A DNA stretch of 64,000 bases from a virus, in IMG/VR virus record IMGVR_UViG_3300042340_000507, positions 113,045-177,044 of that record. One strand, given 5' to 3'. Both the position numbers and the translations under genes were made by a program. The notes beneath the pieces are model-generated. The model was given only the letters and a program-made list of their open reading frames with translations, ran no database searches and was not told the DNA's origin. Of the stretch, positions 3,175-33,568 are shown piece by piece (the stretch's first letter is position 1; each line of letters opens with the position of its first letter).

Positions 3175-4158
3175 GTGAAACACCTCCAATCCTTTTCCCT
3201 GTTCGAAGCTCGGAAGACTTCAGATCTGACCCAAAAGCAAAAGACTTTCCTGACCAAATACACGCAAGGGACCTGGTCGGTCAACCGACAGACCGGTCTG
3301 GTCGATGTGGAAGGAGATTTTGACTGTAGTTACAGCGGACTGAGGTCTCTATCGGGCATCTCGTTCGGACATGTCAGTGGGAATTTCTCCTGTGCCGGCA
3401 ACGATCTGACCTCCCTGGCCGGGGCACCCCAGACGGTGGGTGGGTATTTCTCCTGCGACAACAACCAGCTGACCTCCCTGGTCGGGGCACCCCAGACGGT
3501 GTGTGGGAGTTTCTTCTGTCAAGGCAACCATCTGACCTCCCTGGCAGGGGCACCTCAGACGGTGGGTGGGGTTTTCGACTGTTCCGGCAACCAGCTGACG
3601 ACCCTGGCCGGGGCACCTCAGAAGGTAAATAGGAGTTTCGGCTGTTCCGGCAATCGACTGATCTCTCTGGCCGGGGCACCTCAGACGGTGGGTGGGAATT
3701 TCTACTGCGACAACAACCAGCTGACCTCCCTGGTCGGGGCACCTCAGACGGTGGGTCGGGATTTCTGGTGTTCCCACAACCGGCTGACGACCCTGGTCGG
3801 GGCACCTCAGACGGTGGGTGGGTATTTCTTCTGCGACTCTTTCAAACTCCGGAGTGGGGAATGGAATCCCCAGGGCTGGTTGGCCATTCTGGCCACTGGA
3901 GATAGAAAAGCCCGGAGGCTGATTGTGACCCTGCCCATGTTCGATGCCGGCTTCTGGCTGCAGAAACTGAAGGGAGACTTGAAGAAAGACGGTCAGGTGC
4001 TTCTGCAGCTGGCAGACCTCTGGGATAAGTCAGGCTGGGAGGAGCAGAGACAGGAGATCGAACAGAGACTCAGTCCTGAGCAGCTTCGGGTCATCAAGGC
4101 CCTAAAGACCAAATTGGGCTACGTCAATCCCTGGAAAGACTTTGACGGGATTGTCTAG
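3175..4158 (+). CDS. Phage repeat protein, 7 x 20-residue LxSLxGAPQ repeats, leader-bearing (paralogue 1)
   Basis: Hypothetical protein of 327 aa. Residues 1-13 form the leader (V/M)KHLQSFSLFEA, which resembles a T4 capsid-targeting sequence ending in an LxE-type site. A conserved N-domain (KQKTFLTKYTQGTWSVN, then GLVDVxGDFDCSY) is followed by seven copies of a 20-residue leucine-rich-like repeat (core LTSLAGAPQTVGG-x-F-x-C) at about 70-220. The C-terminal domain of about 100 aa (FDAGFWLQKLKGDLKKDG to LGYVNPWKD) is almost identical in the two following paralogues. The GTG start is chosen because the leader and its 5' flank are conserved in all three copies. The gene is visibly more GC-rich than its neighbours. 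Similar repeats occur in other phages and metagenomes; the function is unknown, and a head-packaged protein is my inference. Confidence 0.85.
   Translation: MKHLQSFSLFEARKTSDLTQKQKTFLTKYTQGTWSVNRQTGLVDVEGDFDCSYSGLRSLSGISFGHVSGNFSCAGNDLTSLAGAPQTVGGYFSCDNNQLTSLVGAPQTVCGSFFCQGNHLTSLAGAPQTVGGVFDCSGNQLTTLAGAPQKVNRSFGCSGNRLISLAGAPQTVGGNFYCDNNQLTSLVGAPQTVGRDFWCSHNRLTTLVGAPQTVGGYFFCDSFKLRSGEWNPQGWLAILATGDRKARRLIVTLPMFDAGFWLQKLKGDLKKDGQVLLQLADLWDKSGWEEQRQEIEQRLSPEQLRVIKALKTKLGYVNPWKDFDGIV
3385..3837 (+). repeat. 60-bp tandem repeats, 7 units
   Basis: In-frame 60-bp direct repeats, each with a CTGGCC/CTGGTC-GGGGCACC-CAGACGGTG core, encode the 20-residue units of paralogue 1. Units are very similar at the DNA level and share blocks with the arrays in the next two genes, a good substrate for unequal recombination. 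Confidence 0.85.
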
Positions 4159-4167
4159 AGATATATA
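4159..4167 (+). promoter_or_regulatory. Late-type promoter motif AGATATATA
   Basis: Located 4 nt before the GTG start of paralogue 2 and just after the TAG stop of paralogue 1 (TAGAGATATATAAGG). Identical in sequence and spacing to the block before paralogue 1. Confidence 0.6.
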
Positions 4168-4171
4168 AGGC

Positions 4172-4954
4172 GTGAAACACCTCCAATCCTTTTCCCTGTT
4201 CGAAGCCCGGAAGACTTCAGGCCTGACCCAAAAGCAAAAGACTTTCCTGACCAAATACACGCAAGGGACCTGGTCGGTCAACCAGCAGACCGGTCTGGTC
4301 GATGTGAAAGGAGATTTTGACTGTAGTTACAAAAGACTGAAGTCTCTGCGGGGAATCTCGTTCGGACATGTCAGTGGGGATTTCTGGTGTTTCAGAAACC
4401 AGCTGACGACCCTGGCCGGGGCACCCCAGACGGTGGGTGGGAGTTTCTTCTGTGGCGGCAACCAGCTGAAGACCCTGGCCGGGGCACCCCAGACGGTGGG
4501 TGGGGATTTCTACTGTCAAGGCAACCAGCTGACTTCCCTGGTCGGGGCACCCCAGACGGTAAATGGGGATTTCTACTGTTTCAGAAACCAGCTGACGACC
4601 CTGGCCGGGGCACCCCAGACGGTGAGGGAGGGTTTCTACTGCGACTCTTTCGAAGTCCGAAGTGGGAAATGGAATCCCCAGGGCTGGACCGAGATTCTGG
4701 CCAAAAAAAATAGCAAAGCCCGGAGCCTGATTGTGATCCTGTTCGATGCCGGCTTCTGGCTGCAGAAACTGAAGGGAGATCTGAAGAAAGACGGCCAGGT
4801 GCTCCTGCAGCTGGCAGACCTCTGGGATGAACCAGGCTGGGAGGAGCAGAGACAGAAGATCGAACAGAGACTCAGTCCTGAGCAGCTTCGGGTCATCAAG
4901 GCCCTAAAGACCAAATTGGGCTACGTCGATCCCTGGAAGGACGGGATTGTCTAG
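4172..4954 (+). CDS. Phage repeat protein, 4 x 20-residue repeats, leader-bearing (paralogue 2)
   Basis: A 260-aa paralogue of the preceding gene. It has the same leader (KHLQSFSLFEA), the same N-domain and an almost identical C-terminal domain, but only four LxxLxGAPQ units (about residues 70-155), so it looks like a contracted version of the family. A small deletion in the C-terminal domain (IVILFDAGF against IVTLPMFDAGF in the others) separates it from its siblings. It starts at GTG 4172, 13 bp after the previous stop, with its own copy of the late-type motif. The function is unknown. The tandem arrangement, near-identical flanks and differing repeat numbers indicate recent duplication and recombination. 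Confidence 0.85.
   Translation: MKHLQSFSLFEARKTSGLTQKQKTFLTKYTQGTWSVNQQTGLVDVKGDFDCSYKRLKSLRGISFGHVSGDFWCFRNQLTTLAGAPQTVGGSFFCGGNQLKTLAGAPQTVGGDFYCQGNQLTSLVGAPQTVNGDFYCFRNQLTTLAGAPQTVREGFYCDSFEVRSGKWNPQGWTEILAKKNSKARSLIVILFDAGFWLQKLKGDLKKDGQVLLQLADLWDEPGWEEQRQKIEQRLSPEQLRVIKALKTKLGYVDPWKDGIV
4390..4640 (+). repeat. 60-bp tandem repeats, 4 units
   Basis: The same in-frame 60-bp repeat family as in paralogue 1, here with four LxxLxGAPQ-encoding units. The units keep the GGGGCACCCCAGACGGT core. Confidence 0.8.
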
Positions 4955-4963
4955 AGATATATA
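4955..4963 (+). promoter_or_regulatory. Late-type promoter motif AGATATATA
   Basis: Third copy of the block, 5 nt before the GTG start of paralogue 3 (AGATATATAAGGGCGTG, one extra G compared with the other two). Confidence 0.6.
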
Positions 4964-4968
4964 AGGGC

Positions 4969-6072
4969 GTGAAACACCTCCAATCCTTTTCCCTGTTCGA
5001 AGCCCGGAAGACTTCAGATCTGACCCAAAAGCAAAAGACTTTCCTGACCAAATACACGCAAGGGACCTGGTCGGTCAACCCAGAGACAGGGCTAGTGGAT
5101 GTAAAGGGAAGTTTTGCTTGTGGGGGTAAAAGATTAAAGAGCTTACAGGGCATCTCGTTCGGACATGTCAGTGGGAATTTCTACTGTTCCGTCAACCAGC
5201 TGACCTCCCTGGCAGGGGCACCCCAGAAGGTGAGTGGGGATTTCTCCTGTTTCAGAAACCAGCTGACCTCTCTGGTCGGGGCACCTCAGACGGTGGATGG
5301 GCATTTTTACTGTGGCGGCAACCGGCTGACGACCCTGGTCGGGGCACCCCAGACGGTGGATGGGGATTTAGACTGTTCCTACAACCAGCTGACGACCCTG
5401 GCCGGGGCACCTCAGACGATGGATGGGCATTTCTTCTGTTCCTACAACCAGCTGACGACCCTGGTCGGGGCACCTCAGACGGTGGGTGGGTATTTCTCCT
5501 GTTCCAGAAACCAGCTGACCTCCCTGTCAGGGGCACCCCAGAAGGTGGGTGGGAATTTCTCCTGTTCCGGCAACCAGCTGACCTCCCTGGCAGGGGCACC
5601 CCAGACGGTGGATGGGTATTTCTCCTGTTCCTACAACCAGCTGACGACCCTGGCCGGGGCACCTCAGACGGTGGGTGGGAATTTCTACTGCGACAATAAC
5701 CGGCTGACCTCCCTGGTCGGGGCACCACAGACGGTGGGTGGGATTCTCCGGTGCGACTCTTTCACACTCCAAAGTGGGGCATGGAATCCCCTGGGCTGGA
5801 CCAAGATTCTGGCCACTGGAGATAGCGAAGCCCGGAGCCTGATTGTGACCCTGCCCATGTTCGATGCCGGCTTCTGGCTGCAGAAACTGAAGGGAGACCT
5901 GAAGAAAGACGGCCAGGTGCTCCTGCAGCTGGCAGACCTCTGGGATAAGTCAGGCTGGGAGGAGCAGAGACAGGAGATCGAACAGAGACTCAGTCCTGAG
6001 CAGCTTCGGGTCATTAAGGCCCTGAAGACCAAATTGGGCTACGTCGATCCCTGGAAGGACGGGATTGTCTAG
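4969..6072 (+). CDS. Phage repeat protein, 9 x 20-residue repeats, leader-bearing (paralogue 3)
   Basis: The longest of the three tandem paralogues, 367 aa. It shares the KHLQSFSLFEA leader and N-domain, though residues around 50-60 diverge (SFACGGKRLKSLQG). Nine 20-residue LxxLxGAPQ units follow (about residues 72-255), then the conserved C-terminal domain ending GYVDPWKDGIV. The repeats carry a regular Phe-x-Cys two residues before an Asn/Gly-rich turn, as expected for stacked beta or LRR-like coils. It starts at GTG 4969. A degenerate AGATATAA remnant follows its stop (6073-6080). The function is unknown; an internal head protein or surface-binding role are both possible, and the leader favours the former. 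Confidence 0.85.
   Translation: MKHLQSFSLFEARKTSDLTQKQKTFLTKYTQGTWSVNPETGLVDVKGSFACGGKRLKSLQGISFGHVSGNFYCSVNQLTSLAGAPQKVSGDFSCFRNQLTSLVGAPQTVDGHFYCGGNRLTTLVGAPQTVDGDLDCSYNQLTTLAGAPQTMDGHFFCSYNQLTTLVGAPQTVGGYFSCSRNQLTSLSGAPQKVGGNFSCSGNQLTSLAGAPQTVDGYFSCSYNQLTTLAGAPQTVGGNFYCDNNRLTSLVGAPQTVGGILRCDSFTLQSGAWNPLGWTKILATGDSEARSLIVTLPMFDAGFWLQKLKGDLKKDGQVLLQLADLWDKSGWEEQRQEIEQRLSPEQLRVIKALKTKLGYVDPWKDGIV
5185..5750 (+). repeat. 60-bp tandem repeats, 9 units
   Basis: The largest array of the 60-bp family, nine in-frame units inside paralogue 3. Adjacent units differ by a few substitutions; variation is mostly at the F-x-C-x-x-N positions of the encoded repeat. Confidence 0.85.
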
Positions 6073-6090
6073 AGATATAACATAGGTAAA

Positions 6091-6099
6091 GTATATATA
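6091..6099 (+). promoter_or_regulatory. Late-type promoter motif GTATATATA
   Basis: GTATATATA ends 4 nt before the ATG of the lysozyme gene. It is a variant of the AGATATATA block and keeps the close spacing seen for the three repeat genes. Confidence 0.5.
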
Positions 6100-6103
6100 G
6101 ATA

Positions 6104-6985
6104 ATGAAAGAAAAAATAAGAAGGATTCAAAACTTCAGAGATTTTAGCAACTTGAATAGTTCCTTTAATTTAGATTTAGTTCTGGAAAAAATGGGTCGAA
6201 GAAGCCCAGTTGAATTGGCAAATTTACTGGAAAAATCCATCAAAGGTCTAGGAACGGACGAAGAACTGTTGCTGAAAACTTTATTAGAAATTCCTGATTT
6301 GAAAACTCTGGGGGAAATTGATGCCATTTTTGCTAAATTTCCAGCCGTTTATTCATATAGAAGTGTTGGATCCCTTATTAATTCCGAGTTAGGTTTTTTT
6401 GATCAGAAAATAATCGATGAAATAAAAAAACACACGGATCAATTGAAAGTCACAAATGACTTCTTACAAAAACAAGAAGAATCTCGTTTGAAGGACGAAA
6501 AAGTTAGAAGAACCGCGGAAGAAAGCATTAAATTGCACGAGGGTATTAAATATCAAATTTACCGGGACTCTAGAAAAAATCTATCAATTGGAATTGGAAT
6601 GAATCTAGAAAGATCGGATGCAGATACCAGGTTAAAGGAAATTGGGGCCAATCCAAAATTAATCAGGTCGGGAAAAGAGAAATTGAATGACAGTCAAATT
6701 CAGATTCTGTTTAAAAAAGACGTGGATAAAGCTATCGAAGATGCCAAATCTCTGGTTCCTGATTTGGGTCAACAGCCCTTACCGGTACAATGTGTTTTGA
6801 TAGAAATGGCATTCAACCTCGGAAAGTCGGGCCTGTCCGAATTCAAAAAATTCTTATCTCACATCCAAAACATGAATTACAAATTGGCTTCCCAAGAGAT
6901 GCTCAATTCAACCTGGGCCAAGCAAGTGGGGAACAGAGCAAAAGAGCTGGCCAAAAGAATTGAAACTTACGAAGTAAAAAAATAA
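6104..6985 (+). CDS. T4-type lysozyme (GH24) with annexin-like N-terminal domain
   Basis: Muramidase predicted to cleave peptidoglycan. Seen: 293 aa with a C-terminal GH24 domain (about 138-290) aligning with T4 lysozyme. LHEGIKYQIYRD supplies catalytic Glu146 and Asp155, SIGIG replaces T4's TIGIG (Ser161 for Thr26), and FNLGKSG and NRAKELAKRI match the T4 C-lobe. The N-terminal part contains VELANLLEKSIKGLGTDEEL (residues 36-55), the K-G-x-GTDE signature of annexin repeats, followed by a matching helical stretch to about 110. The N-terminus (KIRRIQNFRDFSNLN) is a weaker version of the leader found on neighbouring genes. The extra domain argues for a virion-associated lysozyme rather than a soluble endolysin; this is inferred. 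Confidence 0.88.
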   Translation: MKEKIRRIQNFRDFSNLNSSFNLDLVLEKMGRRSPVELANLLEKSIKGLGTDEELLLKTLLEIPDLKTLGEIDAIFAKFPAVYSYRSVGSLINSELGFFDQKIIDEIKKHTDQLKVTNDFLQKQEESRLKDEKVRRTAEESIKLHEGIKYQIYRDSRKNLSIGIGMNLERSDADTRLKEIGANPKLIRSGKEKLNDSQIQILFKKDVDKAIEDAKSLVPDLGQQPLPVQCVLIEMAFNLGKSGLSEFKKFLSHIQNMNYKLASQEMLNSTWAKQVGNRAKELAKRIETYEVKK

Positions 6986-6993
6986 AAAAAAAA

Positions 6994-7557
6994 ATGAAAA
7001 TACTGAACTTCGGAGAATTTAGGGATCAGATCAGTGAAAATCTGCAATATCACCTCCAAAATGATCTGACTCTAGCCACTAGCGTCTTTAGAATTGGCTC
7101 CGAAGCCTGGTACGGGGTAATAGATGAGACTAGACGCCTTTGGGAATCAAATTCGATTGAATTAGACGACGACGACACTTTTTTGATTAGCACCGAACTG
7201 GGCCGAAGGGGAATCTTTGAAGGGAAAGAGGTGTGGCTGGATTTACCTCTCCCTGAAGAGGATCTGCACGAGGCAGAATATAAGGGCAGGAAGGTTTCTC
7301 TGAACAAACCTTTCAGAACCCCGGGTGCTCCTAGAAAATTTGGGGTTTACACTAAAAACGAGTCTGGTAACGTCGTTCTAGTTAGATTCGGCCAGCCAGG
7401 TATGAGAATAAGAAATGACGATCCTCAGAGATCAAAATCTTTTAGAGCAAGACACAATTGTGATAACCCAGGTCCCAAATGGAAAGCCAGATACTGGTCC
7501 TGTAACGTGTCAAGATACAGAAAACTACTGGGCATTAAATCTTCAAGTCCATGGTAG
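6994..7557 (+). CDS. Conserved phage protein with KSFRARHNCDNPGPK...ARYWSC C-terminal domain
   Basis: 187 aa, function unknown. The N-terminus MKILNFGEFRDQISEN fits the leader pattern and ends in an I-x-E site. The C-terminal half contains VYTKNESGNVVLVRFGQPG and then KSFRARHNCDNPGPKWKARY-WSC. This block is shared by many T4-like and cyanophage proteins, often as the C-terminal part of larger virion or head-maturation proteins. Two conserved Cys and one His suggest metal binding or a disulfide. The gene follows the lysozyme by 8 bp, and its stop overlaps the next gene's start by 7 bp, so the three are probably one transcript. Confidence 0.75.
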   Translation: MKILNFGEFRDQISENLQYHLQNDLTLATSVFRIGSEAWYGVIDETRRLWESNSIELDDDDTFLISTELGRRGIFEGKEVWLDLPLPEEDLHEAEYKGRKVSLNKPFRTPGAPRKFGVYTKNESGNVVLVRFGQPGMRIRNDDPQRSKSFRARHNCDNPGPKWKARYWSCNVSRYRKLLGIKSSSPW

Positions 7558-8564: not shown

Positions 8565-8570
8565 AATTTT

Positions 8571-9815: not shown

Positions 9816-9869
9816 AGAAAATTATTTCTCATTATATTCTAGGAAGAGAAAAAATTTCAGGAATGACGA

Positions 9870-9893: not shown

Positions 9894-9900
9894 AAGAGGT

Positions 9901-10590: not shown

Positions 10591-10613
10591 AGAAAAAAAT
10601 TAGAACTGAAAAA

Positions 10614-11246
10614 TTATTCTGAATCAGGGGTCCGGTTTAGTTCTAAGGCCTTCACGATCTTCTTGTAAACGCTCTCGCTACCTTTGGCGGCATTATATTT
10701 TTTCAGTTTTCTGTTTTTTGTGTAGAGATCAATCAGGGGTGCAGTTTTTTCTTCATAGTCTCTGAATCTTTTAGCCACCACCTCTGGATCTTTGTCGTCC
10801 TTCCGGTCTTCTCTTTCCGCCCTGGCAGTAATTCTGCCTTTGGCCGTTTCTTCGTCTATATCCAGATAGATGGTGTGGCTCAGGCCCAAGCCCATTTTTC
10901 CGAGCAAAGAATCTAACAGAGAGGCTTGTTTAACGGTCCGGGGGAATCCGTCAATAATGATCCCATCATCAGGATCAATTTTCTTCAGTTCCCTCCGGAT
11001 CATCTTTACAACTGTCTGATCGTCGATGAAATCACCCCGTTCAACTTTTTTCTTGATCTCCGGGTTTTTTGATTTCCTGAGCAATTCTCCGGTTGAAATG
11101 TGGTGGAAGCCTTGCCTATCTGCCAGTTTTTCGGAAAAAGTTCCTTTACCTGATCCCGGAGGTCCCATCACAACTAGAATTTTTCCTTGAGAATCCGGCA
11201 ATTCTCTTTCTATTAAAAAATCTGAGAAATTCTTAACTAAATCCAT
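10614..11246 (-). CDS. adk: Adenylate kinase with capsid-targeting-like leader
   Basis: Predicted to catalyse ATP + AMP = 2 ADP. Seen: a P-loop GPPGSGKGT at residues 28-36, the AMP-binding segment HHISTGELLR, IIIDGFPRTVKQ near 95-106, and the LID/Arg motifs (TARAEREDRKDDKDPEVVAKRFRDYEEKTAPLI). At 210 aa it is of short adenylate kinase size. The first 15 residues (MDLVKNFSDFLIERE) are absent from ordinary kinases and match the leader on neighbouring unknown proteins, ending in L-I-E. The late-type motif GGATATATA lies 4 nt before its ATG. Nucleotide enzymes are normally early genes, so this one may be packaged and injected (inference). Confidence 0.9.
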   Translation of the reverse strand: MDLVKNFSDFLIERELPDSQGKILVVMGPPGSGKGTFSEKLADRQGFHHISTGELLRKSKNPEIKKKVERGDFIDDQTVVKMIRRELKKIDPDDGIIIDGFPRTVKQASLLDSLLGKMGLGLSHTIYLDIDEETAKGRITARAEREDRKDDKDPEVVAKRFRDYEEKTAPLIDLYTKNRKLKKYNAAKGSESVYKKIVKALELNRTPDSE

Positions 11247-16304: not shown

Positions 16305-16336
16305 AATTACGAAGTCAATTTTTGTCTTCTCCAGTT

Positions 16337-16345
16337 GGATATATA
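16337..16345 (+). promoter_or_regulatory. Late-type promoter motif GGATATATA
   Basis: A plus-strand copy lying between the divergent polymerase gene and the small plus-strand gene, ending 5 nt before the latter's ATG. Its orientation follows the gene it precedes, which shows the motif is directional. Confidence 0.6.
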
Positions 16346-16350
16346 CACAT

Positions 16351-16677
16351 ATGACCCCCCGTATTAAAAGTTTCAAAAAATTTTTATCCGAAAGCTGGAG
16401 CGCCTTCGCTCCAGGGAGTGTGGTAGTGCCAGGTGATTGGTATAAAGACAACGTTAACTCCAGAAATTATCGTCCAGCCTACACTCAGATGCCCCAGGTA
16501 GTTGACGATCTCTACAACACAACTGACTTGTATTCGTATCTAGACGAGTTAGCAGAGGAAGAAGAATTTCAAAAAATGCTTTCAAAAGACCACAAAGATT
16601 CTAAGAAAGTGCTAAAGTACGTAAAACAGAGAATTCATGAGACTCTATCTGGCAAGGCCAAAACGGAAAGTAAATAG
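16351..16677 (+). CDS. Small leader-bearing phage protein (108 aa)
   Basis: Unknown function. ATG 16351 is chosen because it follows the GGATATATA motif and starts a perfect leader, MTPRIKSFKKFLSES; the longer ORF would extend back through the polymerase gene. After the leader come an Ala/Gly/Val patch (AFAPGSVVVPGDWYKDN), Asn/Tyr-rich residues and an acidic then basic helix (YLDELAEEEEFQKMLSKDHKDSKKVLKYVKQRI). The first residues resemble those of the 184-aa gene at 27659 (MTPRLKNFSMFSEA), pointing to a shared origin of the leader. It ends 4 bp from the convergent LamG gene. A head-packaged role is inferred from the leader. Confidence 0.75.
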   Translation: MTPRIKSFKKFLSESWSAFAPGSVVVPGDWYKDNVNSRNYRPAYTQMPQVVDDLYNTTDLYSYLDELAEEEEFQKMLSKDHKDSKKVLKYVKQRIHETLSGKAKTESK

Positions 16678-19304: not shown

Positions 19305-19781
19305 TTATTTGCCTTGAAATTTTTTCATGATCTGGATAAAGTCACTGAAGGATTGAATCGGGTTGGACGTTCTTCCAGTTTTTTTCTTTTTCGTGGATTG
19401 GGCGGCTGGAGTTCCAACTTTCAGACTGGGAAATTTATCGCCTGAGCCCTGTTTGGCAGGATCGTAAAAATTTTGGTTCGTACCAGGTCCTTCAGGAGGG
19501 GTGACCGCTCCCATGCCAGGAGTAGCGTTCAAGGTGGCAAAGGCACCCTCACTTTCACTTAGATCGTAGTCGGGATAGCCAGAATCTTGAACAAACTTTT
19601 CGGCTTGCCATGTTTCTGCACAGTATTCATTTTCGTGCATCCAATCGGCCAGTCTCTCTAGAATGCTGTCTGAACCAGAACATTCTGATTCGAAAAAAGG
19701 CATCTCGTCAGAGAGATCTTCTAGACACACAACTGCGTAACCTTGAGTCGAATTGCCTGTTGGAAAATAGGTGTTTTTCAT
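19305..19781 (-). CDS. Phage protein with GSGDKFPSL motif and C-terminal leader-like segment
   Basis: 158 aa, unknown function. The N-terminal half is acidic with three Cys (VVCLEDL, ESECSGSDS, NEYCAETW). The middle has a flexible segment, GMGAVTPPEGPGTNQ, then GSGDKFPSLKVGTPAAQ, a combination I associate with small proteins of T4-like phages. A basic patch (STKKKKTGRTSNP) precedes the C-terminus PIQSFSDFIQIMKKFQGK. That last segment copies the QSFxxFI leader pattern seen at other proteins' N-termini, here at the C-terminal end. It starts at ATG 19779-19781, 4 bp after the next upstream gene. Confidence 0.65.
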   Translation of the reverse strand: MKNTYFPTGNSTQGYAVVCLEDLSDEMPFFESECSGSDSILERLADWMHENEYCAETWQAEKFVQDSGYPDYDLSESEGAFATLNATPGMGAVTPPEGPGTNQNFYDPAKQGSGDKFPSLKVGTPAAQSTKKKKTGRTSNPIQSFSDFIQIMKKFQGK

Positions 19782-20062: not shown

Positions 20063-20476
20063 CTATCTAAAGTTTCCTCTCATTTCTTTCCTTTTTAAAT
20101 AATAATACAGGTAATTAAGGGCTCTGAGATAGTCGGCCGGTTTAGTAAAAGGCCCCGGAAATTTTTTGATTTCATTTCCAAATCCCTCGGGAATTGTGTC
20201 GTCAACTTTCGGATTGTATCTTCTAACAATGCCTGTGGGATGGATTGTATAGAAGATTTTCTCCTCACCTGGCTCTAAAGATTCCTGATCAGGACGAAAA
20301 AATTTAAGGGTGTTGTTGAGACCCTGTTGAAGAGAATGCTGCTCAACAAAGCCCAGATCCAGAATTTTTTGATAAATGTCAGATTTCCTGATGCCTCCAA
20401 GAGAAAGACTCCTACGGGTATCGGTTAGATATTCTTCCCGAGGATCGTAGTCTTCATATTCGAGCAGGAATCTCAT
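20063..20476 (-). CDS. Hypothetical protein (137 aa)
   Basis: Unknown. ATG 20474-20476 is chosen, one base after the upstream stop; the longer ORF start lies inside the upstream gene. The N-terminus MRFLLEYEDYDPREEY is acidic and aromatic and may be a divergent leader. The rest is mixed alpha/beta: SDIYQKILDLGFVEQHSLQQGLNN reads like a winged-helix or small DNA-binding helix pair. FYTIHPTGIVRRYNP and a Tyr-rich C-terminal helix (ALNYLYYYLKRKEMRGNF) follow. There are no catalytic motifs. It is translationally coupled to the DUF3008-like gene. Confidence 0.6.
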   Translation of the reverse strand: MRFLLEYEDYDPREEYLTDTRRSLSLGGIRKSDIYQKILDLGFVEQHSLQQGLNNTLKFFRPDQESLEPGEEKIFYTIHPTGIVRRYNPKVDDTIPEGFGNEIKKFPGPFTKPADYLRALNYLYYYLKRKEMRGNFR

Positions 20477-20477
20477 G

Positions 20478-22117: not shown

Positions 22118-23461
22118 TTATATTCCAAGTTTCTCTCTAGTTTTAGGTCCCACTATTCCATCATCCACCAAACCTTTTTTCCTTTGAAATTCCTTAACAG
22201 CCTGTTCAGTTTTAGGACCAAAATTAGTTCTTTGGGTTCCTAAATTTGTCATGCCCAATGCATCCTGGAGTTTACCGACCTCCTCAGACTTCATTCCTCT
22301 TTTTAAGACTTCTTTTCCTCCGCTGCCTGCTGACTGGACGGATCCAGATCCTCCCGAGTCCTTTCCTTCTGAGTCTTCTTTTTTAACTTCACTAAATCCC
22401 AAGGCACCCAATAGAACTTGTTTTTGATCGGAGCTTAAACTGGAAGCCCATTTTTTCAAATCTTCCTTTGTTTTGATTGACGAAGGAAATTTTATATCTT
22501 TTACTTCTTCTTCTTCTTTATATTTTTGATCTTTTTCTCCTTTATTATCTTCTTCTGAAGTTAAAAGTTTTCTGAATTCTTCTATTTGTTTAACGATTGT
22601 TTCGGCCCAAACTTCTTTTGATGATTTGCCAAGGTCAACATTTTCCAATTCTTGCTGACCCCCTTTAGATTTTTGAGAGGACTTGAAATTGATTTTTGCT
22701 CCTTTTGCATTTAGATCCGTGACCAATTTTCCCATCATTTCTTGGGAAACTTCCACTGCCTTGTCTTTGAAAGTCGTAGAAAAAGCCAAGCCAAAAAGTT
22801 CCAATAAGTTCGATAATTGTTCGGACACAACTTCATTGTATCCTGAGAATTCCTCATCCGATAAAGCCTTACCCACCATTTCTATCAATTGGTCATAGGT
22901 AGTTTCTTCTCTTAAGGAGGTCATACTTTTAACAATCCCCCTTTCTACTGCATTCATTTCTTTCCAGATTTGGGGCCAAACCTGGAGCCAAAATTCTTTA
23001 GGCTCGATTTTAGTTTCTTCAATAATAGGCTTACCATCAAATTTGACAGACGGAATAAAGTACTTAGACACTATAGGAAAAATCTTATTGAGTGACCTTT
23101 CGATTAGAGCCTTAATAGCCACTTTATATTTGGAATCGATGTTGTCTAGGGTTTCAGTTTTGACTTCTTCGATCCAGGTATTCATAACATTGTTTGCTAT
23201 CCCGTATGGTTCAACACTTTGACCGTTAATGTCGATTTTTTGCTCCATAGGTAATTCTTTGCCCTTAATTTGATAAAAGGGCGTACTCAAACGTTTTTGG
23301 CTTTCTTCTTGATCACCCAGGACTGGAGAATCCCCTCCTCTTTTTTTTCCGATTTTATCGAGTTTTTTTTCTAATCTTTCTTCCCTTCTTTGCAGTCTCC
23401 TCTCCTTTCGACTCATTTCTTCTTCTAAAATATAATCAGAGAATTTAATAATAGAGTTCAT
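22118..23461 (-). CDS. Leader-bearing protein with C-terminal peptidoglycan-binding domain
   Basis: 447 aa. Leader MNSIIKFSDYILEEE at the N-terminus, then a basic coiled coil (MSRKERRLQRREERLEKKLDKI), a long helical middle (about 90-330) and an acidic/Lys linker. The C-terminal 70 residues form a PG_binding_1 three-helix domain (LKRGMKSEEVGKLQDALGM; NFGPKTEQAVKEFQRKKGL; DGIVGPKTREKL). This domain binds cell-wall peptidoglycan in hydrolases, but no catalytic domain is visible here. The late-type motif at 23477-23485 precedes it. Leader plus cell-wall-binding tail suggests a virion protein that acts in the envelope after injection (inference). Confidence 0.8.
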   Translation of the reverse strand: MNSIIKFSDYILEEEMSRKERRLQRREERLEKKLDKIGKKRGGDSPVLGDQEESQKRLSTPFYQIKGKELPMEQKIDINGQSVEPYGIANNVMNTWIEEVKTETLDNIDSKYKVAIKALIERSLNKIFPIVSKYFIPSVKFDGKPIIEETKIEPKEFWLQVWPQIWKEMNAVERGIVKSMTSLREETTYDQLIEMVGKALSDEEFSGYNEVVSEQLSNLLELFGLAFSTTFKDKAVEVSQEMMGKLVTDLNAKGAKINFKSSQKSKGGQQELENVDLGKSSKEVWAETIVKQIEEFRKLLTSEEDNKGEKDQKYKEEEEVKDIKFPSSIKTKEDLKKWASSLSSDQKQVLLGALGFSEVKKEDSEGKDSGGSGSVQSAGSGGKEVLKRGMKSEEVGKLQDALGMTNLGTQRTNFGPKTEQAVKEFQRKKGLVDDGIVGPKTREKLGI

Positions 23462-23777: not shown

Positions 23778-24311
23778 CTAGCGATTCAAGACGTAAACTC
23801 CTTTTCTAGATCCGGGTTGCAAATGCCATTCATCACCTAGGATCGAAATTAACATAGATCTAGCGTACTCCTCGTAGTTATTCAGAACTAGATTTTGATT
23901 CATCTCATCCACTATTCTGATTGTTTTTGGGTTTTTCTCCAAGTAATTCAAAAGACATTTGCCAATCTGCTTGTAGAGCCTCGCCAATTCTCCTCCCTTA
24001 AGTTTAAATTTATTGGAGTTAGCTTCGGGTAAATTCTTGGTGTTCTCAATTGCAATGTCTTCGATCACCTCGGGCTCGATCTGGTTGAGATTAATGACGG
24101 CATAAGAATTTTTTGGACCCTCCATATTTTCAAATCTGGAGTATTTGCCAATCAAAAAAACATAACCTTGCTGGTCTCCTTTTTCTTTGTCTATCTGGAA
24201 AAAATAGTAACATAGATCCCCGTCTTTCTTAAAGAGAAAGGGCAAGGTTCCAAACCCATCGGCTTCATTTAGCTGGGTAATGAATTGAGAATAAGGAAGA
24301 ATAACTTTCAC
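23778..24311 (-). CDS. Leader-bearing hypothetical protein (177 aa)
   Basis: Unknown. GTG start (24309-24311), 17 nt after a late-type motif. The leader (V/M)KVILPYSQFITQLNEAD fits the pattern with an L-N-E end. The rest is a single alpha/beta domain: LPFLFKKDGDLCYYFFQIDKE and YVFLIGKYSRFENM-EGPKNSYAVINLN form a beta-sheet, then helices with LARLYKQIGKCLLNYLEKNP. The end reads YARSMLISILGDEWHLQPG. No catalytic motif is recognised. The strand-turn pattern is reminiscent of acetyltransferase or barrel folds but gives no firm assignment. Confidence 0.65.
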   Translation of the reverse strand: MKVILPYSQFITQLNEADGFGTLPFLFKKDGDLCYYFFQIDKEKGDQQGYVFLIGKYSRFENMEGPKNSYAVINLNQIEPEVIEDIAIENTKNLPEANSNKFKLKGGELARLYKQIGKCLLNYLEKNPKTIRIVDEMNQNLVLNNYEEYARSMLISILGDEWHLQPGSRKGVYVLNR

Positions 24312-26300: not shown

Positions 26301-26308
26301 GGTATGAA

Positions 26309-26740
26309 TTATTTATGGGGAGGAAAACTTGTTGGAAAATTTGGAAAAAAAGATAAAGGACCGTATTCTTGAAGTTCAAAATCAACATATCCTCTGGACT
26401 CCAAAAAAAGAAGACTATTGAGAATTTTGCCAATAATTAATTTAGATTTATCATGTAATGGTGAGTTCCAGGTCATTAAGAGCAAGGGAACATAAACGGA
26501 TAAAGGAGGAGGAGAAAAACCAAAATTGATCAAATCGTAGACTGATTTTTCCATCGTGTAGATAATTTCATCTCCAATCTGAACTTCGTAATCTCCGGTT
26601 GAATTGGCCATGACAGAACCATTTAAACCCAGCACTGTCCTAAACAAAATGACTTCGGGGTGTTTAAAGATGGATTCTATTCCATCTCCTTCCAGCAAGA
26701 AATCCAAAGTGGTGTAGAAAAGATTAGGGAAAACGTTCAT
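26309..26740 (-). CDS. Hypothetical protein (143 aa)
   Basis: Not recognised. The start ATG (26738-26740) lies inside the last codons of the nucleotidyltransferase gene (17-bp overlap), implying coupled translation. N-terminal MNVFPNLFYTTLDFLLEGDG is hydrophobic and aromatic and could be a divergent leader. The middle (VILFRTVLGLNGSVMANSTGDYEV) and the Pro-rich end (GPLSFFPNFPTSFPPHK) give no family. It is probably soluble and helical. The tight overlap suggests it works with the upstream nucleotidyltransferase, for example as a partner or antidote; that is a guess. Confidence 0.5.
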   Translation of the reverse strand: MNVFPNLFYTTLDFLLEGDGIESIFKHPEVILFRTVLGLNGSVMANSTGDYEVQIGDEIIYTMEKSVYDLINFGFSPPPLSVYVPLLLMTWNSPLHDKSKLIIGKILNSLLFLESRGYVDFELQEYGPLSFFPNFPTSFPPHK

Positions 26741-27656
26741 TACTAACCAGTTTTTTTATTTCCCAAGGAATGTCGTGATTGGTTCTCTCTAAGTATCTGA
26801 CAAAATCTTCCACTATAGATTGTAGTTTATCGGCATGGATAAAAGTCGGTTTTTTTATTAAAGACCAGACATCCTCGAAGGTCTTAACATCACTCGGTCT
26901 AACACCAGAACCAAAAAGTAGATCTAGCATCTTTTGAGGATCCCTGGTGACTAGAAAGGTGCTATCTTCTAAAATTTTAGGTCGGGAGAGTCTTTTTGTT
27001 GCTCCCCGATAGGTCTTACGATTCTTATAAACGCCATCTCCTAGTTTGAGAACATACCCAGTATAATCCATGATTTGCCCTTCTTTATCAACGGAATCTA
27101 CATCCTTCAAGGCCGAAAGAATGGCCTGGAAAAGCCAATTCCTGTGGGCAGATTTATACTTGGATTCTTTTTTTCTCTGGTCCGGGGAGTAAAAAATAAA
27201 TTTAGCCCAATCCATATCCGCAATTGGAATCAGATCAAGTTGAACCGTGCCGTTCTTGATGTTCCCCTCAATGGGCCATTCAACGCTGACTATGTTGATC
27301 CCTTTAAACATTTTGATCTCCGGTTTGTAACCCAAAATGTCGGGGAGTTGGTCCTTCAGTTTCTCGGTCATTACATCCAACACCTTGGATTCAGGAACAC
27401 CCCATTTTTGGGCCAGGAAGGGTTTAGAAACTCCCAAATCCACGTCCCCGGAAGTGTCATCTGGACTTTCTTTTTTTCCAATGCTGCCAATGAGCAAAAA
27501 GTCCCTGTTTAATTTTCCATCGCCCAGCAAGGGAAAAAGGGCTTCCCCTAAGTGGGTCAAAGTTTTGGCCACTTCATCCTCTCGGATCTTTCTAGAACTG
27601 CCAATAGCAGCCCCTCCTTCATTTAATTCCATATATTGTGTGTAGGTATAAATCAT
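26724..27656 (-). CDS. Leader-bearing nucleotidyltransferase (pol beta-like fold)
   Basis: 310 aa from ATG 27654-27656 (an upstream TTG is rejected). Leader MIYTYTQYMELNEGG ends in L-N-E. A catalytic nucleotidyltransferase core follows: DFLLIGSIGKKESPDDTSGDVDLGVS gives the G-S and D-x-D metal-binding signature, and VQLDLIPIADMDW supplies the third acidic strand. A helical C-terminal half follows (FQAILSALKDVD; KLQSIVEDFVRYLERT). The family includes tRNA CCA-adding, aminoglycoside and CD-NTase-like enzymes; the substrate cannot be told. Together with the leader it is a candidate injected enzyme. It overlaps the 143-aa gene by 17 bp and follows the 184-aa leader-bearing gene by 2 bp. Confidence 0.78.
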   Translation of the reverse strand: MIYTYTQYMELNEGGAAIGSSRKIREDEVAKTLTHLGEALFPLLGDGKLNRDFLLIGSIGKKESPDDTSGDVDLGVSKPFLAQKWGVPESKVLDVMTEKLKDQLPDILGYKPEIKMFKGINIVSVEWPIEGNIKNGTVQLDLIPIADMDWAKFIFYSPDQRKKESKYKSAHRNWLFQAILSALKDVDSVDKEGQIMDYTGYVLKLGDGVYKNRKTYRGATKRLSRPKILEDSTFLVTRDPQKMLDLLFGSGVRPSDVKTFEDVWSLIKKPTFIHADKLQSIVEDFVRYLERTNHDIPWEIKKLVSNERFP

Positions 27657-27658
27657 GC

Positions 27659-28213
27659 TCAAATATCGTAAAATCTTCTGGCCCCTTTAATGTAACTTGA
27701 ATACACCCTGCCTTCTTCAGAGCTGGGAGAATCTAGATCAAAATCATCTCCAAATGTTCTTCTGCCACTATCGTAGGCTCTACTATAGAAATCCTCATAG
27801 TCTTCTCTTGTGTTTCTGCCACTTTTTGTAATGGTTTCACCCCATTTTTCTAGCATATCTTTCTTTTGTCTCTTAAGACTCTCCAGAGAATCCCCACCTC
27901 TAAAAGGCATTTTAAAAACATCAACAATAGATTTAGCCACCTTCTGAACAAGGGACAGGCCCATTCGGACCAATCTTAGCGGAGCTCCACTCGGATCTTC
28001 TGCCATAGCTTGAAATCTTGCTCTGGCTCCCGAATCTGAAAATTCACCAATTCCCGTTTCCGATTCTTTTCTTGAATATCGATCCTCTATCCTTCTCTCT
28101 ATTTCTTCGAACTTACTCCAATCGTCCTCTTTATCAAAATTGGATCTAAACCTGCTTCTTTCTCTGTTTATTGCCTCAGAAAACATGGAAAAGTTTTTTA
28201 ATCTGGGAGTCAT
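27659..28213 (-). CDS. Leader-bearing hypothetical protein (184 aa)
   Basis: Unknown. ATG 28211-28213 is chosen because it follows the GGATATATA motif by 18 nt and begins a clear leader (MTPRLKNFSMFSEAI). The longer ORF reads through the motif. The protein is very basic and acidic by turns (RERSRFRSNFDKEDDW, IERRIEDRYSRKE), Arg/Asp/Ser-rich and helical. A short amphipathic helix (LRLVRMGLSLVQKVAKSIVDVFKMPF) could bind membrane, and the C-terminus is Tyr/Arg-rich (YSSYIKGARRFYDI). Such charged sequences fit an internal head protein that binds DNA (inference). It lies 35 bp after uvsW. Confidence 0.7.
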   Translation of the reverse strand: MTPRLKNFSMFSEAINRERSRFRSNFDKEDDWSKFEEIERRIEDRYSRKESETGIGEFSDSGARARFQAMAEDPSGAPLRLVRMGLSLVQKVAKSIVDVFKMPFRGGDSLESLKRQKKDMLEKWGETITKSGRNTREDYEDFYSRAYDSGRRTFGDDFDLDSPSSEEGRVYSSYIKGARRFYDI

Positions 28214-28231
28214 AAATCTGATTTTTTGATT

Positions 28232-28240
28232 TATATATCC
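28232..28240 (-). promoter_or_regulatory. Late-type promoter motif (GGATATATA on minus strand)
   Basis: TATATATCC on the plus strand, just after the uvsW stop and 18 nt before the 184-aa gene. Confidence 0.6.
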
Positions 28241-28248
28241 CAACTTGT

Positions 28249-29772
28249 TCACAATTTAACCTTGAAGACTTTGTATTTGAATTTCTCTTTCTTATAAATT
28301 TGCATTCGAACGTCCCCGTGTTTCATCAGGTAGTTAAGGTATTTAGGAGTAGAAAAGTCATCCACAAAATCGATTACGTTCACTTTCTCCTTGCCCTCCA
28401 TTTTTCTCATACCCCTGCCCAGACTTTGCTTGATCAAAACCTCGCTTTTGTATGATTCAACCAAGAAAATGTTATGAAGATTGTTGATCGAAATTCCAGT
28501 TGAAAATGTACCAAAGGTTGCTACCAGAATCTTATTTTCTCCGTCCTTCATTCTCTCTTTGTATTCCTCCCTTAATTTTTCATCAGTGTCTCCATCCACG
28601 TAGAAAACCTCTTTCGTACTATCTATTTCTCTCAGTCTATTCCAGATTTGCTTTCCGTATTCATCCTTTACGGACTGAAAAAGCACCAGGGAGTTCTTGG
28701 ATGTTTTCGAAATAAAATCAACGATATATGAAATTCTTTTTTCACTCTCTATCACCAATTTTCTTTCGATGTTGTAGATGTCGTTGCCCTCTAAATTCTG
28801 GGCAGAGAATTTCAACTGGGCAAGTTTATCCTTGATCTCCTGATCTAGCCAATCGAGGATCACAACCTTAATAGAAACAGGGGTGGCGTGGTCGTTCCGA
28901 AAAAGAAAATCAGGAGAGATCTCGACCAACACGGGGCCCAGATACTGCTGGATGGTCAGGTGATCGGCAGAAGACCGATTGGTCAAGGTTCCGGTTAGAC
29001 CAAATCTCCACCCCGTGTGCATGCATTTGGATAGAATTTTTTTGATGGAAACTGAATTGGAATGGTGACACTCGTCCACAAAAACAGCATCCACGTCCTC
29101 GAAAAATTCCTTTTCCTGCTTGACCAGAGATTGAAAGGTGCCAATGATCAGATCGCAGCCTTCTCTCATTTTACTGCCTCCTCCTATCTGTTGGATCTTA
29201 ACCCCCAATTCATCGATCCCGTAGTCAATGAAATCGTCATTGCCCTGAAACACAAGGTTAGTACTAGGAACTACAATTAAAAACTTTTTTATCATGCCCC
29301 TCTGCTTGAGAAAGGCAAAAATCATGAAGGCAATCAGTGTCTTACCCGAAGAGGTTGCTATCTCCGACACAGAATACCTAAATTTAACAATCTTCCAGGC
29401 TGCCTCAATCTGGTAGTCCCTGGGTTTCATCTCCTTATTGGCAAAAAATTCATTGACCCAAGAGGTAAATTCCTCCAGTGTCAGGTCTGAAAAAATAAGG
29501 TCCTCCAGTCCCTCAATCTCCACCTCGTAACCGTATTCTTTTCCTAATTTATGAATCTCCATCCAAAGACCCGTTGGAACTTTCCACACCGGTCCTCTTT
29601 TATCGACGAAACTGATGGAACCATCCCACAGTTTTTTCTTTACCAAGGGATGAAAGAACCAATTGTTTACCTTTCGGGTCAGAGAAATCTCAACCTGCTT
29701 TTTTTCGACTTCAGGGGTCAAAGAATTCAGTAACAACCATTGTTTATCATCTGACACTAAAAATTTTAACAT
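28249..29772 (-). CDS. uvsW: UvsW-type DNA/RNA helicase (SF2)
   Basis: ATP-dependent branch-migration and R-loop-unwinding helicase for recombination-dependent replication. Seen: 507 aa with a beta-rich N-domain, Walker A EIATSSGKTLIAF (near 137-148), DEAD-type box VDECHH (near 230), TGTLTN motif III-like, and helicase C-domain motifs (VATFGTFSTGISINNLHN; SLGRGMRKMEGKEKVNVIDFVDD). It is slightly shorter than T4 UvsW (587 aa). It starts at ATG 29770-29772, 9 bp after the UvsY-like gene. In T4 uvsW and uvsY also lie close together, so the order supports both calls. Confidence 0.92.
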   Translation of the reverse strand: MLKFLVSDDKQWLLLNSLTPEVEKKQVEISLTRKVNNWFFHPLVKKKLWDGSISFVDKRGPVWKVPTGLWMEIHKLGKEYGYEVEIEGLEDLIFSDLTLEEFTSWVNEFFANKEMKPRDYQIEAAWKIVKFRYSVSEIATSSGKTLIAFMIFAFLKQRGMIKKFLIVVPSTNLVFQGNDDFIDYGIDELGVKIQQIGGGSKMREGCDLIIGTFQSLVKQEKEFFEDVDAVFVDECHHSNSVSIKKILSKCMHTGWRFGLTGTLTNRSSADHLTIQQYLGPVLVEISPDFLFRNDHATPVSIKVVILDWLDQEIKDKLAQLKFSAQNLEGNDIYNIERKLVIESEKRISYIVDFISKTSKNSLVLFQSVKDEYGKQIWNRLREIDSTKEVFYVDGDTDEKLREEYKERMKDGENKILVATFGTFSTGISINNLHNIFLVESYKSEVLIKQSLGRGMRKMEGKEKVNVIDFVDDFSTPKYLNYLMKHGDVRMQIYKKEKFKYKVFKVKL

Positions 29773-29781
29773 GTCTTTTCC

Positions 29782-30222: not shown

Positions 30223-30226
30223 AGTG

Positions 30227-30430
30227 TTAAAATAAGCCTCCTTTGCTCTTTTTATTTTTTCCTAGCTCTACCATCTGGCAGCGATTTACTTTTTTGACAG
30301 GTTTTGGCATTTGAAAGTTTTCTTCAATGTTTTCTAAATTGTCCAGATCTTGAACCTCGTGCAAGGTACAAGGAAATTTTAGTTTGGGAGGTGATTTTGG
30401 TTTCTCCTCTGGTGTGTAGTTGATGAACAT
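30227..30430 (-). CDS. Small hypothetical protein (67 aa)
   Basis: Unknown. Pro/Lys-rich N-terminus (TPEEKPKSPPKLKFPC), an acidic centre (LDNLENIEENF) and a basic tail ending GKNKKSKGGLF, with two Cys. It is probably unstructured until bound. The ATG overlaps the primase stop by one base (TAATG), so the two are coupled and a role as a replisome accessory peptide is possible, though nothing in the sequence shows it. Confidence 0.55.
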   Translation of the reverse strand: MFINYTPEEKPKSPPKLKFPCTLHEVQDLDNLENIEENFQMPKPVKKVNRCQMVELGKNKKSKGGLF

Positions 30431-31494: not shown

Positions 31495-31506
31495 AGATCC
31501 TGTAAA

Positions 31507-31543
31507 TTAAAAAAAGAGGAGAACCTCCCCAGGTTCTCCTCTT
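31507..31543 (-). terminator. Strong Rho-independent terminator after gp32
   Basis: A 12-bp perfect stem AGAGGAGAACCT/AGGTTCTCCTCT with loop CCCC (31515-31542) is followed on the minus strand by seven T. It lies 18 bp after the gp32-like stop codon and would insulate the highly expressed gp32 gene from primase. Confidence 0.9.
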
Positions 31544-31561
31544 ACCCCAACACATTAAAAA

Positions 31562-32560: not shown

Positions 32561-32625
32561 AATTTCTTTAATTTTTTTAAGTTTGATCTTTTAATGGAGA
32601 GAATAATAAAAAGTTTCACCCCTTT

Positions 32626-33312
32626 TTATATATCCTTTGAAAATTTTTTTTCTGATGACATGAGGTATAGACAGATCCAGGTGGCATCGATTAGATCATC
32701 GAGAGGCTTTTGAACTACCTTACTGGATGAGATCCAAGTGGAAGCTCCTGCTCTCAATGTATCTAAGAAATTGTTCAGACCAGTCTCAAGATCTCTTTTT
32801 TCTAACAGGGCATGATAGAGCTCGTCTTTTTTACAGTTTCCCTTATAGGCATATTTTTTAATGGCAGTAGGAGAATAAACATAAAAGTTGTCGAAGCCAG
32901 TCCTCGTGATTATTCTTTCTCTGAGTAGGGCCGTAGCCATAGAAATATCAATTAACGAATTTCCGTTAGAGGCAAAGCTCAAACCCTCCATCGCAATCAC
33001 TAGTTCATCTTCAGGCTCTAACTGAGAAATAAGATGATGCCACAGGGTGTCTACAATTTGGATGTAGTTCTGCATCTTTGCTCTTTCTTTTTCCGGATAA
33101 GAATCAGGAAATGACAATTTATTCAAAAAAAGCAAATGCACATCAGGCATTTGCTCTAAGACAGAATAGGGTTTGATTGCGGATTTAATAAGAGATTGCT
33201 GGGTTCTATCTGATCTAGTAATAGACAGCCAACTGTAGTTGCCATTTTTATACAAACAATAGGCAGGGGAATTAAGAGAAAAATCTATCCCAACGTAAAT
33301 TGGATTGGACAC
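32626..33312 (-). CDS. RuvC-like Holliday-junction resolvase/nuclease
   Basis: 228 aa, RNase H fold. Predicted to cut branched DNA during recombination or packaging. Seen: IYVGIDFSLNSPAYCLY at the N-terminus (catalytic Asp10), LVIAMEGLSFASNGNSL near 105-122 (catalytic Glu) and the C-terminal KPLDDLIDATWICLYL (Asp pair near 203-208). This is the D-E-D(D) set of RuvC-family enzymes. TAIKKYAYKGNCKKDEL is typical of RuvC (P-x-x-I-K-x-x-x-x-G). T4 uses endonuclease VII instead, so this is a non-homologous replacement. GTG start (33310-33312). The gp32 late-type motif lies in its last codons. Confidence 0.82.
   Translation of the reverse strand: MSNPIYVGIDFSLNSPAYCLYKNGNYSWLSITRSDRTQQSLIKSAIKPYSVLEQMPDVHLLFLNKLSFPDSYPEKERAKMQNYIQIVDTLWHHLISQLEPEDELVIAMEGLSFASNGNSLIDISMATALLRERIITRTGFDNFYVYSPTAIKKYAYKGNCKKDELYHALLEKRDLETGLNNFLDTLRAGASTWISSSKVVQKPLDDLIDATWICLYLMSSEKKFSKDI
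32627..32635 (-). promoter_or_regulatory. Late-type promoter motif (GGATATATA on minus strand)
   Basis: TATATATCC on the plus strand, overlapping the end of the RuvC-like gene and 66 nt before the gp32-like start, a longer leader than most copies. Confidence 0.5.
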
Positions 33313-33322
33313 CTAAACAGAT

Positions 33323-33568
33323 TTAAAGGTTTGCTGGGACTGCTTCCCCAACTTTACCCGTGTAATTATAAACTTTCACCAAATTATCGTAGCATTTTTT
33401 CATCTGCTCATCAGTAAGACAATCCACTATATCATTTAAGACCCTTTGATCGTTACCCGAGGCGGCAACTAGAAGATTTTTCATATGCTGCTTCAGGTCA
33501 CTTTCCCCGTACATCGGCTGACCGTATTTCATTTCATTTACTCTGGCTAGTTCTGAGAATTTTTTCAT
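33323..33568 (-). CDS. Leader-bearing small protein (81 aa)
   Basis: Unknown. Leader MKKFSELARVNEMKYG ends in V-N-E. The rest is a small helical domain (DLKQHMKNLLVAASGNDQRVLNDIVDCLTDEQMKKCYDNLVKVYNYTGK) with two Cys. ATG 33566-33568 follows a late-type motif by 18 nt. It lies just after the putative tail-tube gene and before the RuvC-like gene, at the junction of structural and replication genes. Its likely class is an internal virion protein, by leader only. Confidence 0.6.
   Translation of the reverse strand: MKKFSELARVNEMKYGQPMYGESDLKQHMKNLLVAASGNDQRVLNDIVDCLTDEQMKKCYDNLVKVYNYTGKVGEAVPANL

What the first reader, a model, noticed from the sequence alone, without database searches (positions are those of the whole stretch)
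3175..33568. A family of T4-like capsid-targeting leaders on at least ten proteins, including enzymes
The N-termini of many otherwise unrelated genes share the pattern M-K/hydrophobic-x-[FY]-x-x-[FY]-[LIM]-x-x-E: KHLQSFSLFEA (three paralogues), MKILNFGEFRDQISEN, MDLVKNFSDFLIERE (adenylate kinase), MTPRIKSFKKFLSES, MNSIIKFSDYILEEE, (V/M)KVILPYSQFITQLNEAD, MIYTYTQYMELNEGG (nucleotidyltransferase), MTPRLKNFSMFSEA and MKKFSELARVNE; the lysozyme has a weaker form. T4 internal head protein III starts MKTYQEFIAE, and the T4 prohead protease cuts after (L/I)xE. Most of these leaders end in L/I/M-x-E. I infer that this phage packages a broad set of proteins into its head, including nucleotide-metabolism and nucleotidyltransferase enzymes, for injection with its DNA.
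Basis: partly seen in the sequence, partly recalled or inferred. Interest (0 to 1): 0.86.

Follow-up and report, generated by a model that had tools for sequence, protein, structure and literature searches.

The report
Capsid-entry tags on many phage proteins
A giant bacterial virus and its relatives, including the 735-kb largest phage described in 2020, put the same short removable tag on dozens of unrelated proteins, enzymes included; the tag matches both a known "enter the virus head" signal and a repeat in the phage's own head scaffold, so these viruses probably load a large protein kit into the head and inject it with their DNA.

Summary
All ten listed leaders are in the window. Across the phage's 312 called genes, [FY]xx[FY] near the N-terminus occurs in 82 (44.5 expected from shuffles, z 7.1); only this spacing is enriched. 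It matches the T4 capsid-targeting sequence, where residues 4 and 7 (the aromatics) target and 8 and 10 (L/I and E) allow cleavage. The window's record is a fragment. A contig identical over 20.6 kb carries the rest, including the predicted gp21-type prohead protease, fused to a scaffold with 14 copies of YSEYLAE at exact 14-residue steps: the leader pattern itself. Leaders and repeats occur together in one clade, including 636-735 kb huge phages, and are absent or not enriched in Lak, MaF61, pT24, PA5oct-like and T4 phages. Tagged proteins include adenylate kinase, a RimK-like ligase (36 of 36 homologous loci keep the tag), LRR proteins, lysozyme-like proteins and, in two huge phages, glutamyl-tRNA synthetase. 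Packaging and injection remain inferred; no virion proteomics exist here. Scaffold mimicry is a pattern-level resemblance, and the co-occurrence is a single clade. Known in kind (T4 CTS); the scale, cargo and scaffold-repeat match look new.

The parts
3175..4158 (+). Leader (KHLQSFSLFEA) + LRR-like repeat protein, paralogue 1
   Evidence: Sequence; LRRNT weak Pfam 1e-3; PHROG 21719 E 1e-11. A fourth copy lies at G000 355-1287 and a relative at G000 106547-107362.
4172..4954 (+). Leader + LRR-like repeat protein, paralogue 2
   Evidence: Sequence.
4969..6072 (+). Leader + LRR-like repeat protein, paralogue 3
   Evidence: Sequence.
6104..6985 (+). Lysozyme with weaker leader (QNFRDFSNLNSS)
   Evidence: Phage_lysozyme Pfam 1.6e-6, domain from residue 145; PHROG tail-lysozyme and endolysin matches.
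6994..7557 (+). Leader (LNFGEFRDQISEN) on a protein of unknown function
   Evidence: Sequence; PHROG 7595, unknown function, E 2.5e-13.
10614..11246 (-). Adenylate kinase with leader KNFSDFLIE|RE
   Evidence: ADK Pfam 1.9e-36 from residue 26; solved adenylate kinases align from query residue 23 to chain residue 2, so the leader is an extension of about 21 residues; leader kept in G005 and L011; absent from adenylate kinases of LR756504 and LR745206.
16351..16677 (+). Leader MTPRIKSFKKFLSES on a small protein (start inside ORF 16114-16677)
   Evidence: G005 homologue carries NLKKFHNFVNEW at the same place.
19305..19781 (-). Protein with a capsid-protein N-arm-like segment after LSE|SEGA and a C-terminal leader-like SFSDFI
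   Evidence: compare MCP SLNE|SAGAYQSLNVVNGMGAVTPP; homologue in G005 ends SYVDFIKKRKK. C-terminal forms are not statistically enriched genome-wide.
22118..23461 (-). Leader IKFSDYILE|EE + C-terminal peptidoglycan-binding domain
   Evidence: PG_binding_1 Pfam 2.6e-12 at residues 393-445.
23778..24311 (-). Leader LPYSQFITQLNE|AD, unknown function
   Evidence: G005 homologue has ITFGQFINNMNE|SD at the same place.
26724..27656 (-). Nucleotidyltransferase-like protein with leader TYTQYMELNE|GG
   Evidence: GSIGKK...SGDVDLG and VQLDLIP acidic motifs conserved between two phages; no Pfam, PHROG or PDB sequence hit.
27659..28213 (-). Leader KNFSMFSE|A, unknown function (start inside ORF 27659-28252)
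   Evidence: G005 counterpart starts MNIKSFDDFIAE|N.
33323..33568 (-). Small protein with leader KKFSELARVNE|M
   Evidence: 71% identical in G005 with KKFTDLKQLNE|M.
20063..20476 (-). Possible weak leader (LLEYEDYDPREE); counterpart in G005 has ILSFKDYEPSEE

Best explanation
The leaders are T4-type capsid-targeting sequences used on a genome scale. The aromatic pair [FY]xx[FY] docks the freshly made protein onto the prohead core. In this clade the core is a protease-scaffold fusion whose tail repeats the same pattern (YSEYLAE, 14 copies every 14 residues), so each leader probably acts as a single detached copy of the scaffold repeat and co-assembles with it. When the head is complete the gp21-type protease cuts after [LIM]xE in the leaders, in the scaffold repeats and in the major capsid protein (HSLNE|SAG). 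This frees the cargo inside the capsid and clears the scaffold; the cargo is then ejected with the DNA. Shown: leader family, protease domain with conserved catalytic-type residues, repeat array, conserved cut-site pattern, clade distribution. Inferred: docking on the repeats, cleavage, packaging, injection.
For: Enrichment at exactly spacing 3. T4 residues 4/7 target and 8/10 process, and internal proteins co-purify with scaffold gp22 (PMC9026906). Protease in the identical contig with the H-P and S-S-R motifs invariant across relatives. 14 exact-period repeats in the fused scaffold; 13 each in four closer relatives; at least ten in 14-residue register in LR756501, LR756502 and LR756504; none in Lak, MaF61 or the gp22-type scaffolds of T4, P-HM1 and Cassandra. 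Leaders enriched in the same phages (z 6.0-12.1) and not in Lak, MaF61, pT24, Cassandra, T4 (z -0.1 to 1.5). The MCP pro-segment keeps a matching cut site. Tags are add-ons to enzymes: adenylate kinase, GluRS, RimK-like ligase in 36 of 36 loci.
Against: No virion proteomics. A profile made from the scaffold repeats finds only a weak excess of N-termini in the own phage (16 against 7.2 shuffled) and little or none in most others, so mimicry is at the level of the shared pattern, with F preferred in leaders and Y in repeats. Leader/repeat phages form one clade (support 99), so co-occurrence is one event. Several tagged proteins are peptidoglycan hydrolase-like, an odd cargo for a head. LR756500 has leaders but degenerate repeats.
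Confidence: 0.75

Rival explanations
1. The leaders are core-assembly elements: tagged proteins are structural prohead core components (gp67/gp68-like) rather than cargo for injection.
For: Several tagged genes sit beside the major capsid protein (h052-h054, h059 in G001) and have no enzyme domain.
Against: Many tagged proteins are enzymes or repeat proteins far from the head genes (adenylate kinase, RimK-like ligase, GluRS, methyltransferases, LRR) with no obvious structural role.
Confidence: 0.12
2. The leader is a sorting signal for another place (tail, membrane or a phage replication compartment), unrelated to the capsid.
For: Some tagged proteins are lysozyme- or peptidoglycan-binding-like, more usual in tails or lysis.
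Against: Position-by-position match to the T4 CTS including the prohead-protease cut site, and occurrence with the repeat-bearing prohead scaffold.
Confidence: 0.07
3. Chance: aromatic pairs in N-termini of phage genes.
For: About 44 of 312 N-termini would carry the pair anyway, so some individual calls are chance.
Against: Pair plus cut site z 6-12 in six phages, spacing 3 only, no enrichment in control phages; retained in 27 distinct ligase leaders with synonymous codon changes.
Confidence: 0.02
4. The leaders are capsid-targeting, but the scaffold repeats share the pattern only because both are protease substrates: the array is a shredding cassette and docking happens elsewhere on the core.
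For: In T4 the gp22 scaffold has none of these repeats and still takes up CTS proteins; processing depends on residues 8 and 10.
Against: The repeats keep both aromatics, which in T4 matter for targeting rather than cutting, at an exact 14-residue period in a region drawn as helix.
Confidence: 0.35

Closest known systems
T4 capsid-targeting sequence (CTS) of internal proteins IPI, IPII, IPIII
   Same: N-terminal, short, aromatic pair spaced by 3, [LI]xE cut site, gp21-family protease; T4 IPI (MKTFKEFTSTTTPVSTITE|A) also has a spacer between pair and cut site.
   Different: T4 carries a handful of tagged proteins (IPI-III) and shows no enrichment across the 99 kb tested; here roughly 20-50 proteins above chance per genome sample, many of them enzymes; T4 gp22 has no repeat of the motif.
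T4 gp21/gp22 protease and scaffold
   Same: Peptidase_S77 domain; scaffold expected to be degraded by cuts after [LI]xE.
   Different: Here protease and scaffold are one chain, with a 14-residue repeat array that repeats the leader pattern.
phiKZ/SPN3US head ejection proteins
   Same: Large set of head proteins, several cleaved by the phage protease and ejected (PMC5694885).
   Different: Propeptides there are mostly over 100 residues; no short common leader of this form.
P1 DarB capsid-targeting signal
   Same: N-terminal signal sufficient to load a reporter into the head (PMC9024508).
   Different: No consensus shared among the P1 Dar proteins was found by its authors.
Huge phages (735-kb genome; Nature 2020, PMC7162821)
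   Same: LR756501, the 735,411-base huge-phage record tested here, carries the leaders and the repeat scaffold.
   Different: Capsid-targeting leaders in such phages did not turn up in the papers found.

Membership tests
T4-type capsid-targeting sequence | 10-20 residue N-terminal extension on otherwise unrelated proteins | tested here: met
T4-type capsid-targeting sequence | Two targeting residues spaced by three (Y4 and F7 in IPIII) | tested here: met
   Only aromatic spacing 3 enriched; T4 data in PMC9026906.
T4-type capsid-targeting sequence | Processing site L/I-x-E | tested here: met
   Pair plus cut site 27 against 7.7; residue after E most often S, A, E or N. The site is present; cutting was not observed.
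T4-type capsid-targeting sequence | gp21-family prohead protease in the same phage | tested here: met
   in the matching contig G001, beyond the end of the window's record.
T4-type capsid-targeting sequence | Leader directs the protein into the head and is removed there | not testable with these tools
   Needs virion proteomics or reporter fusions.
T4-type capsid-targeting sequence | Leader binds the scaffold core | tested here: inconclusive
   Shared pattern with scaffold repeats, but a scaffold-repeat profile separates N-termini only weakly.
Peptidase_S77 prohead protease (gp21) | Domain above curated cut-off with catalytic-type His and Ser conserved | tested here: met
   H71 and S127 invariant in nine sequences.

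The most novel reading that the evidence does not exclude
A clade of giant phages uses one scaffold-derived tag as a general import code for the head: the scaffold is a polymer of the tag, each cargo carries one copy, and tens of host-takeover enzymes, up to a tRNA synthetase, are loaded and injected as a pre-made protein kit.
Probability: 0.45. Interest if true: 0.9.

Novelty: new variant of a known kind. Interest (0 to 1): 0.78.

Why it matters
It predicts, from sequence alone, which proteins giant phages carry inside their heads, including those of the largest phages described. It offers a testable answer to what a capsid-targeting sequence binds, by pointing to a scaffold that contains the same motif 14 times. 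It also supplies natural examples of enzymes fitted with a head-entry tag, useful for protein-delivery work in laboratory phages.

Tried and rejected
Unconstrained EM motif search over-fitted and was dropped. A strict cross-phage profile with E fixed at +6 under-counts this phage because its cut site floats (12 found against 1.3 expected). A C-terminal version of the tag (several tempting cases) is not enriched. A scaffold-repeat profile as a leader detector worked poorly. AlphaFold2 on the protease-scaffold gave low confidence (mean pLDDT 41), though the repeat region is drawn as helix. Joint loss in Lak, suggested by the capsid tree, was not upheld by the 19-protein tree. One apparent leader in LR756504 (MIPIYKPFLNEK) was set aside as the likely natural start of a DegT-type enzyme, a chance match judged from family knowledge.

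Full report
1. Setting. The window is bases 113,045-177,044 of a 177,044-base virus record of a T4-like giant phage; relatives by tail-tube search are phages of Bacteroidota and uncultured huge phages. The record is a fragment in which I found no head-assembly genes. A 230,445-base contig (IMGVR_UViG_3300044974_001280, called G001) is 100% identical over 20.6 kb and 99.98% over the last 8.9 kb of the record, in reverse orientation, and extends it by 89 kb. The phage genome is therefore at least about 266 kb. I called 312 genes over both pieces with a simple hexamer-based caller; start sites are approximate.

2. The observation. All quoted leaders exist. A pair of aromatic residues spaced by three in residues 2-20 occurs in 82 of 312 proteins against 44.5 in residue shuffles (z 7.1); no other spacing from 1 to 8 is enriched (z -1.6 to 0.7). 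Adding a following [LIMVF]xE gives 27 against 7.7 (z 7.7). Removing near-identical paralogues leaves z 6.1 and 6.6. So about 20-40 proteins above chance carry the tag, though single weak cases cannot be told from chance.

3. Match to the T4 capsid-targeting sequence. A published suppressor study assigns targeting mainly to residues 4 and 7 and processing to residues 8 and 10 (PMC9026906). Those are the conserved positions here: [FY]xx[FY][LIM]xE. T4 IPI (MKTFKEFTSTTTPVSTITE|A) has the pair and a candidate cut site separated by a spacer, like several leaders here.

4. The protease and scaffold. G001 51490-53493 (+) encodes 667 residues: a Peptidase_S77 domain and then a long tail. The tail holds 14 copies of [FY]xx[FY][LIVM]xE, consensus YSEYLAE, at exact 14-residue steps (residues 286-474; G001 52345-52953 with a fifteenth degenerate copy). 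Four closer relatives have 13 copies each. LR756501, LR756504 and LR756502 (636-735 kb) have at least ten in 14-residue register. LR756500 keeps only two strict copies, 126 residues (nine periods) apart. Lak-A1, MaF61, T4 gp22, P-HM1 gp22 and the Cassandra scaffold have none, pT24 one. AlphaFold2 draws the region as helix at low confidence.

5. Major capsid protein. The next gene (G001 53520-55241 +) is the capsid protein (PHROG 138, E 6.6e-33). Its pro-segment has KYCHYHSLNE|SAG here and in G005; the huge phages have EYAEFHQINE|NAY, EYAEYHQIHE|NVG and EYAEMHQMNE|NVG. The expected cut-site pattern is thus shared by leader, scaffold repeat and capsid protein. The cut itself is predicted, not observed.

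6. Distribution. Leaders (pair plus cut site) are enriched in G005 (z 7.7), LR756501 (12.1), LR756502 (10.0), LR756504 (7.7) and LR756500 (6.0), and not in Lak-A1 (0.5), MaF61 (-0.1), pT24 (1.5), Cassandra (0.6) or T4 (1.0). The huge phages were sampled over their first 390 kb, MaF61, Cassandra and T4 in part. A 19-protein tree puts the leader-bearing phages in one clade (SH-aLRT 99). Repeats and leaders therefore co-occur, but as one evolutionary event.

7. Tags are add-ons. Solved adenylate kinases align from query residue 23 to their residue 2. The tag is kept in two divergent homologues and absent from the adenylate kinases of LR756504 and LR745206. Glutamyl-tRNA synthetases of LR756501 and LR756504 carry tags (FEQFRLLMKE|S, YSDFLKE|S) before catalytic domains starting at residues 27 and 41. 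A RimK-like ATP-grasp protein keeps [FY]xx[FY][LI]NE[AS] in all 36 loci found. Among 27 distinct DNA leaders the core is fixed at protein level with synonymous codon changes, while position +1 and the flanks vary. One of six search patterns lay in the leader, a mild bias. The nucleotidyltransferase-like protein has TYTQYMELNE|GG here and RFSEFVQLNE|GG in G005. Other tagged proteins: LRR-like proteins here and LRR proteins in LR756500, methyltransferases, a DHH-family protein, a ClpB-like ATPase, lysozyme and peptidoglycan-binding proteins, an endolysin-like protein.

8. Mechanism. Most likely the aromatic pair docks cargo onto the scaffold core as a single copy of its repeat, and the protease then frees the cargo inside the head. 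The targeting and cutting steps rest on T4 precedent; docking on the repeats is my inference. Against it: a profile from the repeats detects leaders only weakly, leaders prefer F and N where repeats have Y and A, and T4 manages without such repeats.

9. Novelty. Capsid-targeting sequences, prohead proteases and ejected head proteins are known (T4, P1, phiKZ-like). Three literature searches turned up no report of a genome-wide leader family in huge phages, of tagged tRNA synthetases or nucleotide kinases, or of a scaffold built from the targeting motif; the library holds open-access papers only, and I did not read the huge-phage papers in full.

Noticed in passing
window 14901-16451 (-) and G000 105329-106483 (-): The family B DNA polymerase appears split into two genes about 22 kb apart; both halves have counterparts in G005, and pT24 also has two DNA polymerase genes.
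   Followed up: partly
window 19305-19781 (-): A small protein carries a copy of the capsid protein's predicted cleavage site and N-arm (LSE|SEGAFATLNATPGMGAVTPP...GSGDKFPSL) and ends in a leader-like SFSDFI; a possible capsid-arm mimic or adaptor.
   Followed up: partly
G000 97363-99828 (+): The ClpB-like ATPase has an N-terminal leader and two further leader-like stretches inside (SFSLFES, SFSEFSDRLDEAE, about residue 690-720), as if a second tagged gene were fused on; could be a polyprotein cut by the protease.
   Followed up: no
G001 35507-37111 and 37117-38742 (L014): Two tandem genes both match the portal protein family (PHROG 213, E 5e-59 and 6e-59).
   Followed up: no
window 42184-53520 (-): A 3778-residue protein with a long [12 protein letters not shown] low-complexity stretch; its C-terminal half is conserved in G005.
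   Followed up: no
L160 16267-17895 and L127 9596-11182: Glutamyl-tRNA synthetases in two huge phages, each with a head-entry-type leader.
   Followed up: yes
window 22118-23461, 6104-6985; G000 76286-77203: Peptidoglycan-binding, lysozyme and endolysin-like proteins carry leaders; why a head cargo would act on cell wall is unexplained.
   Followed up: no
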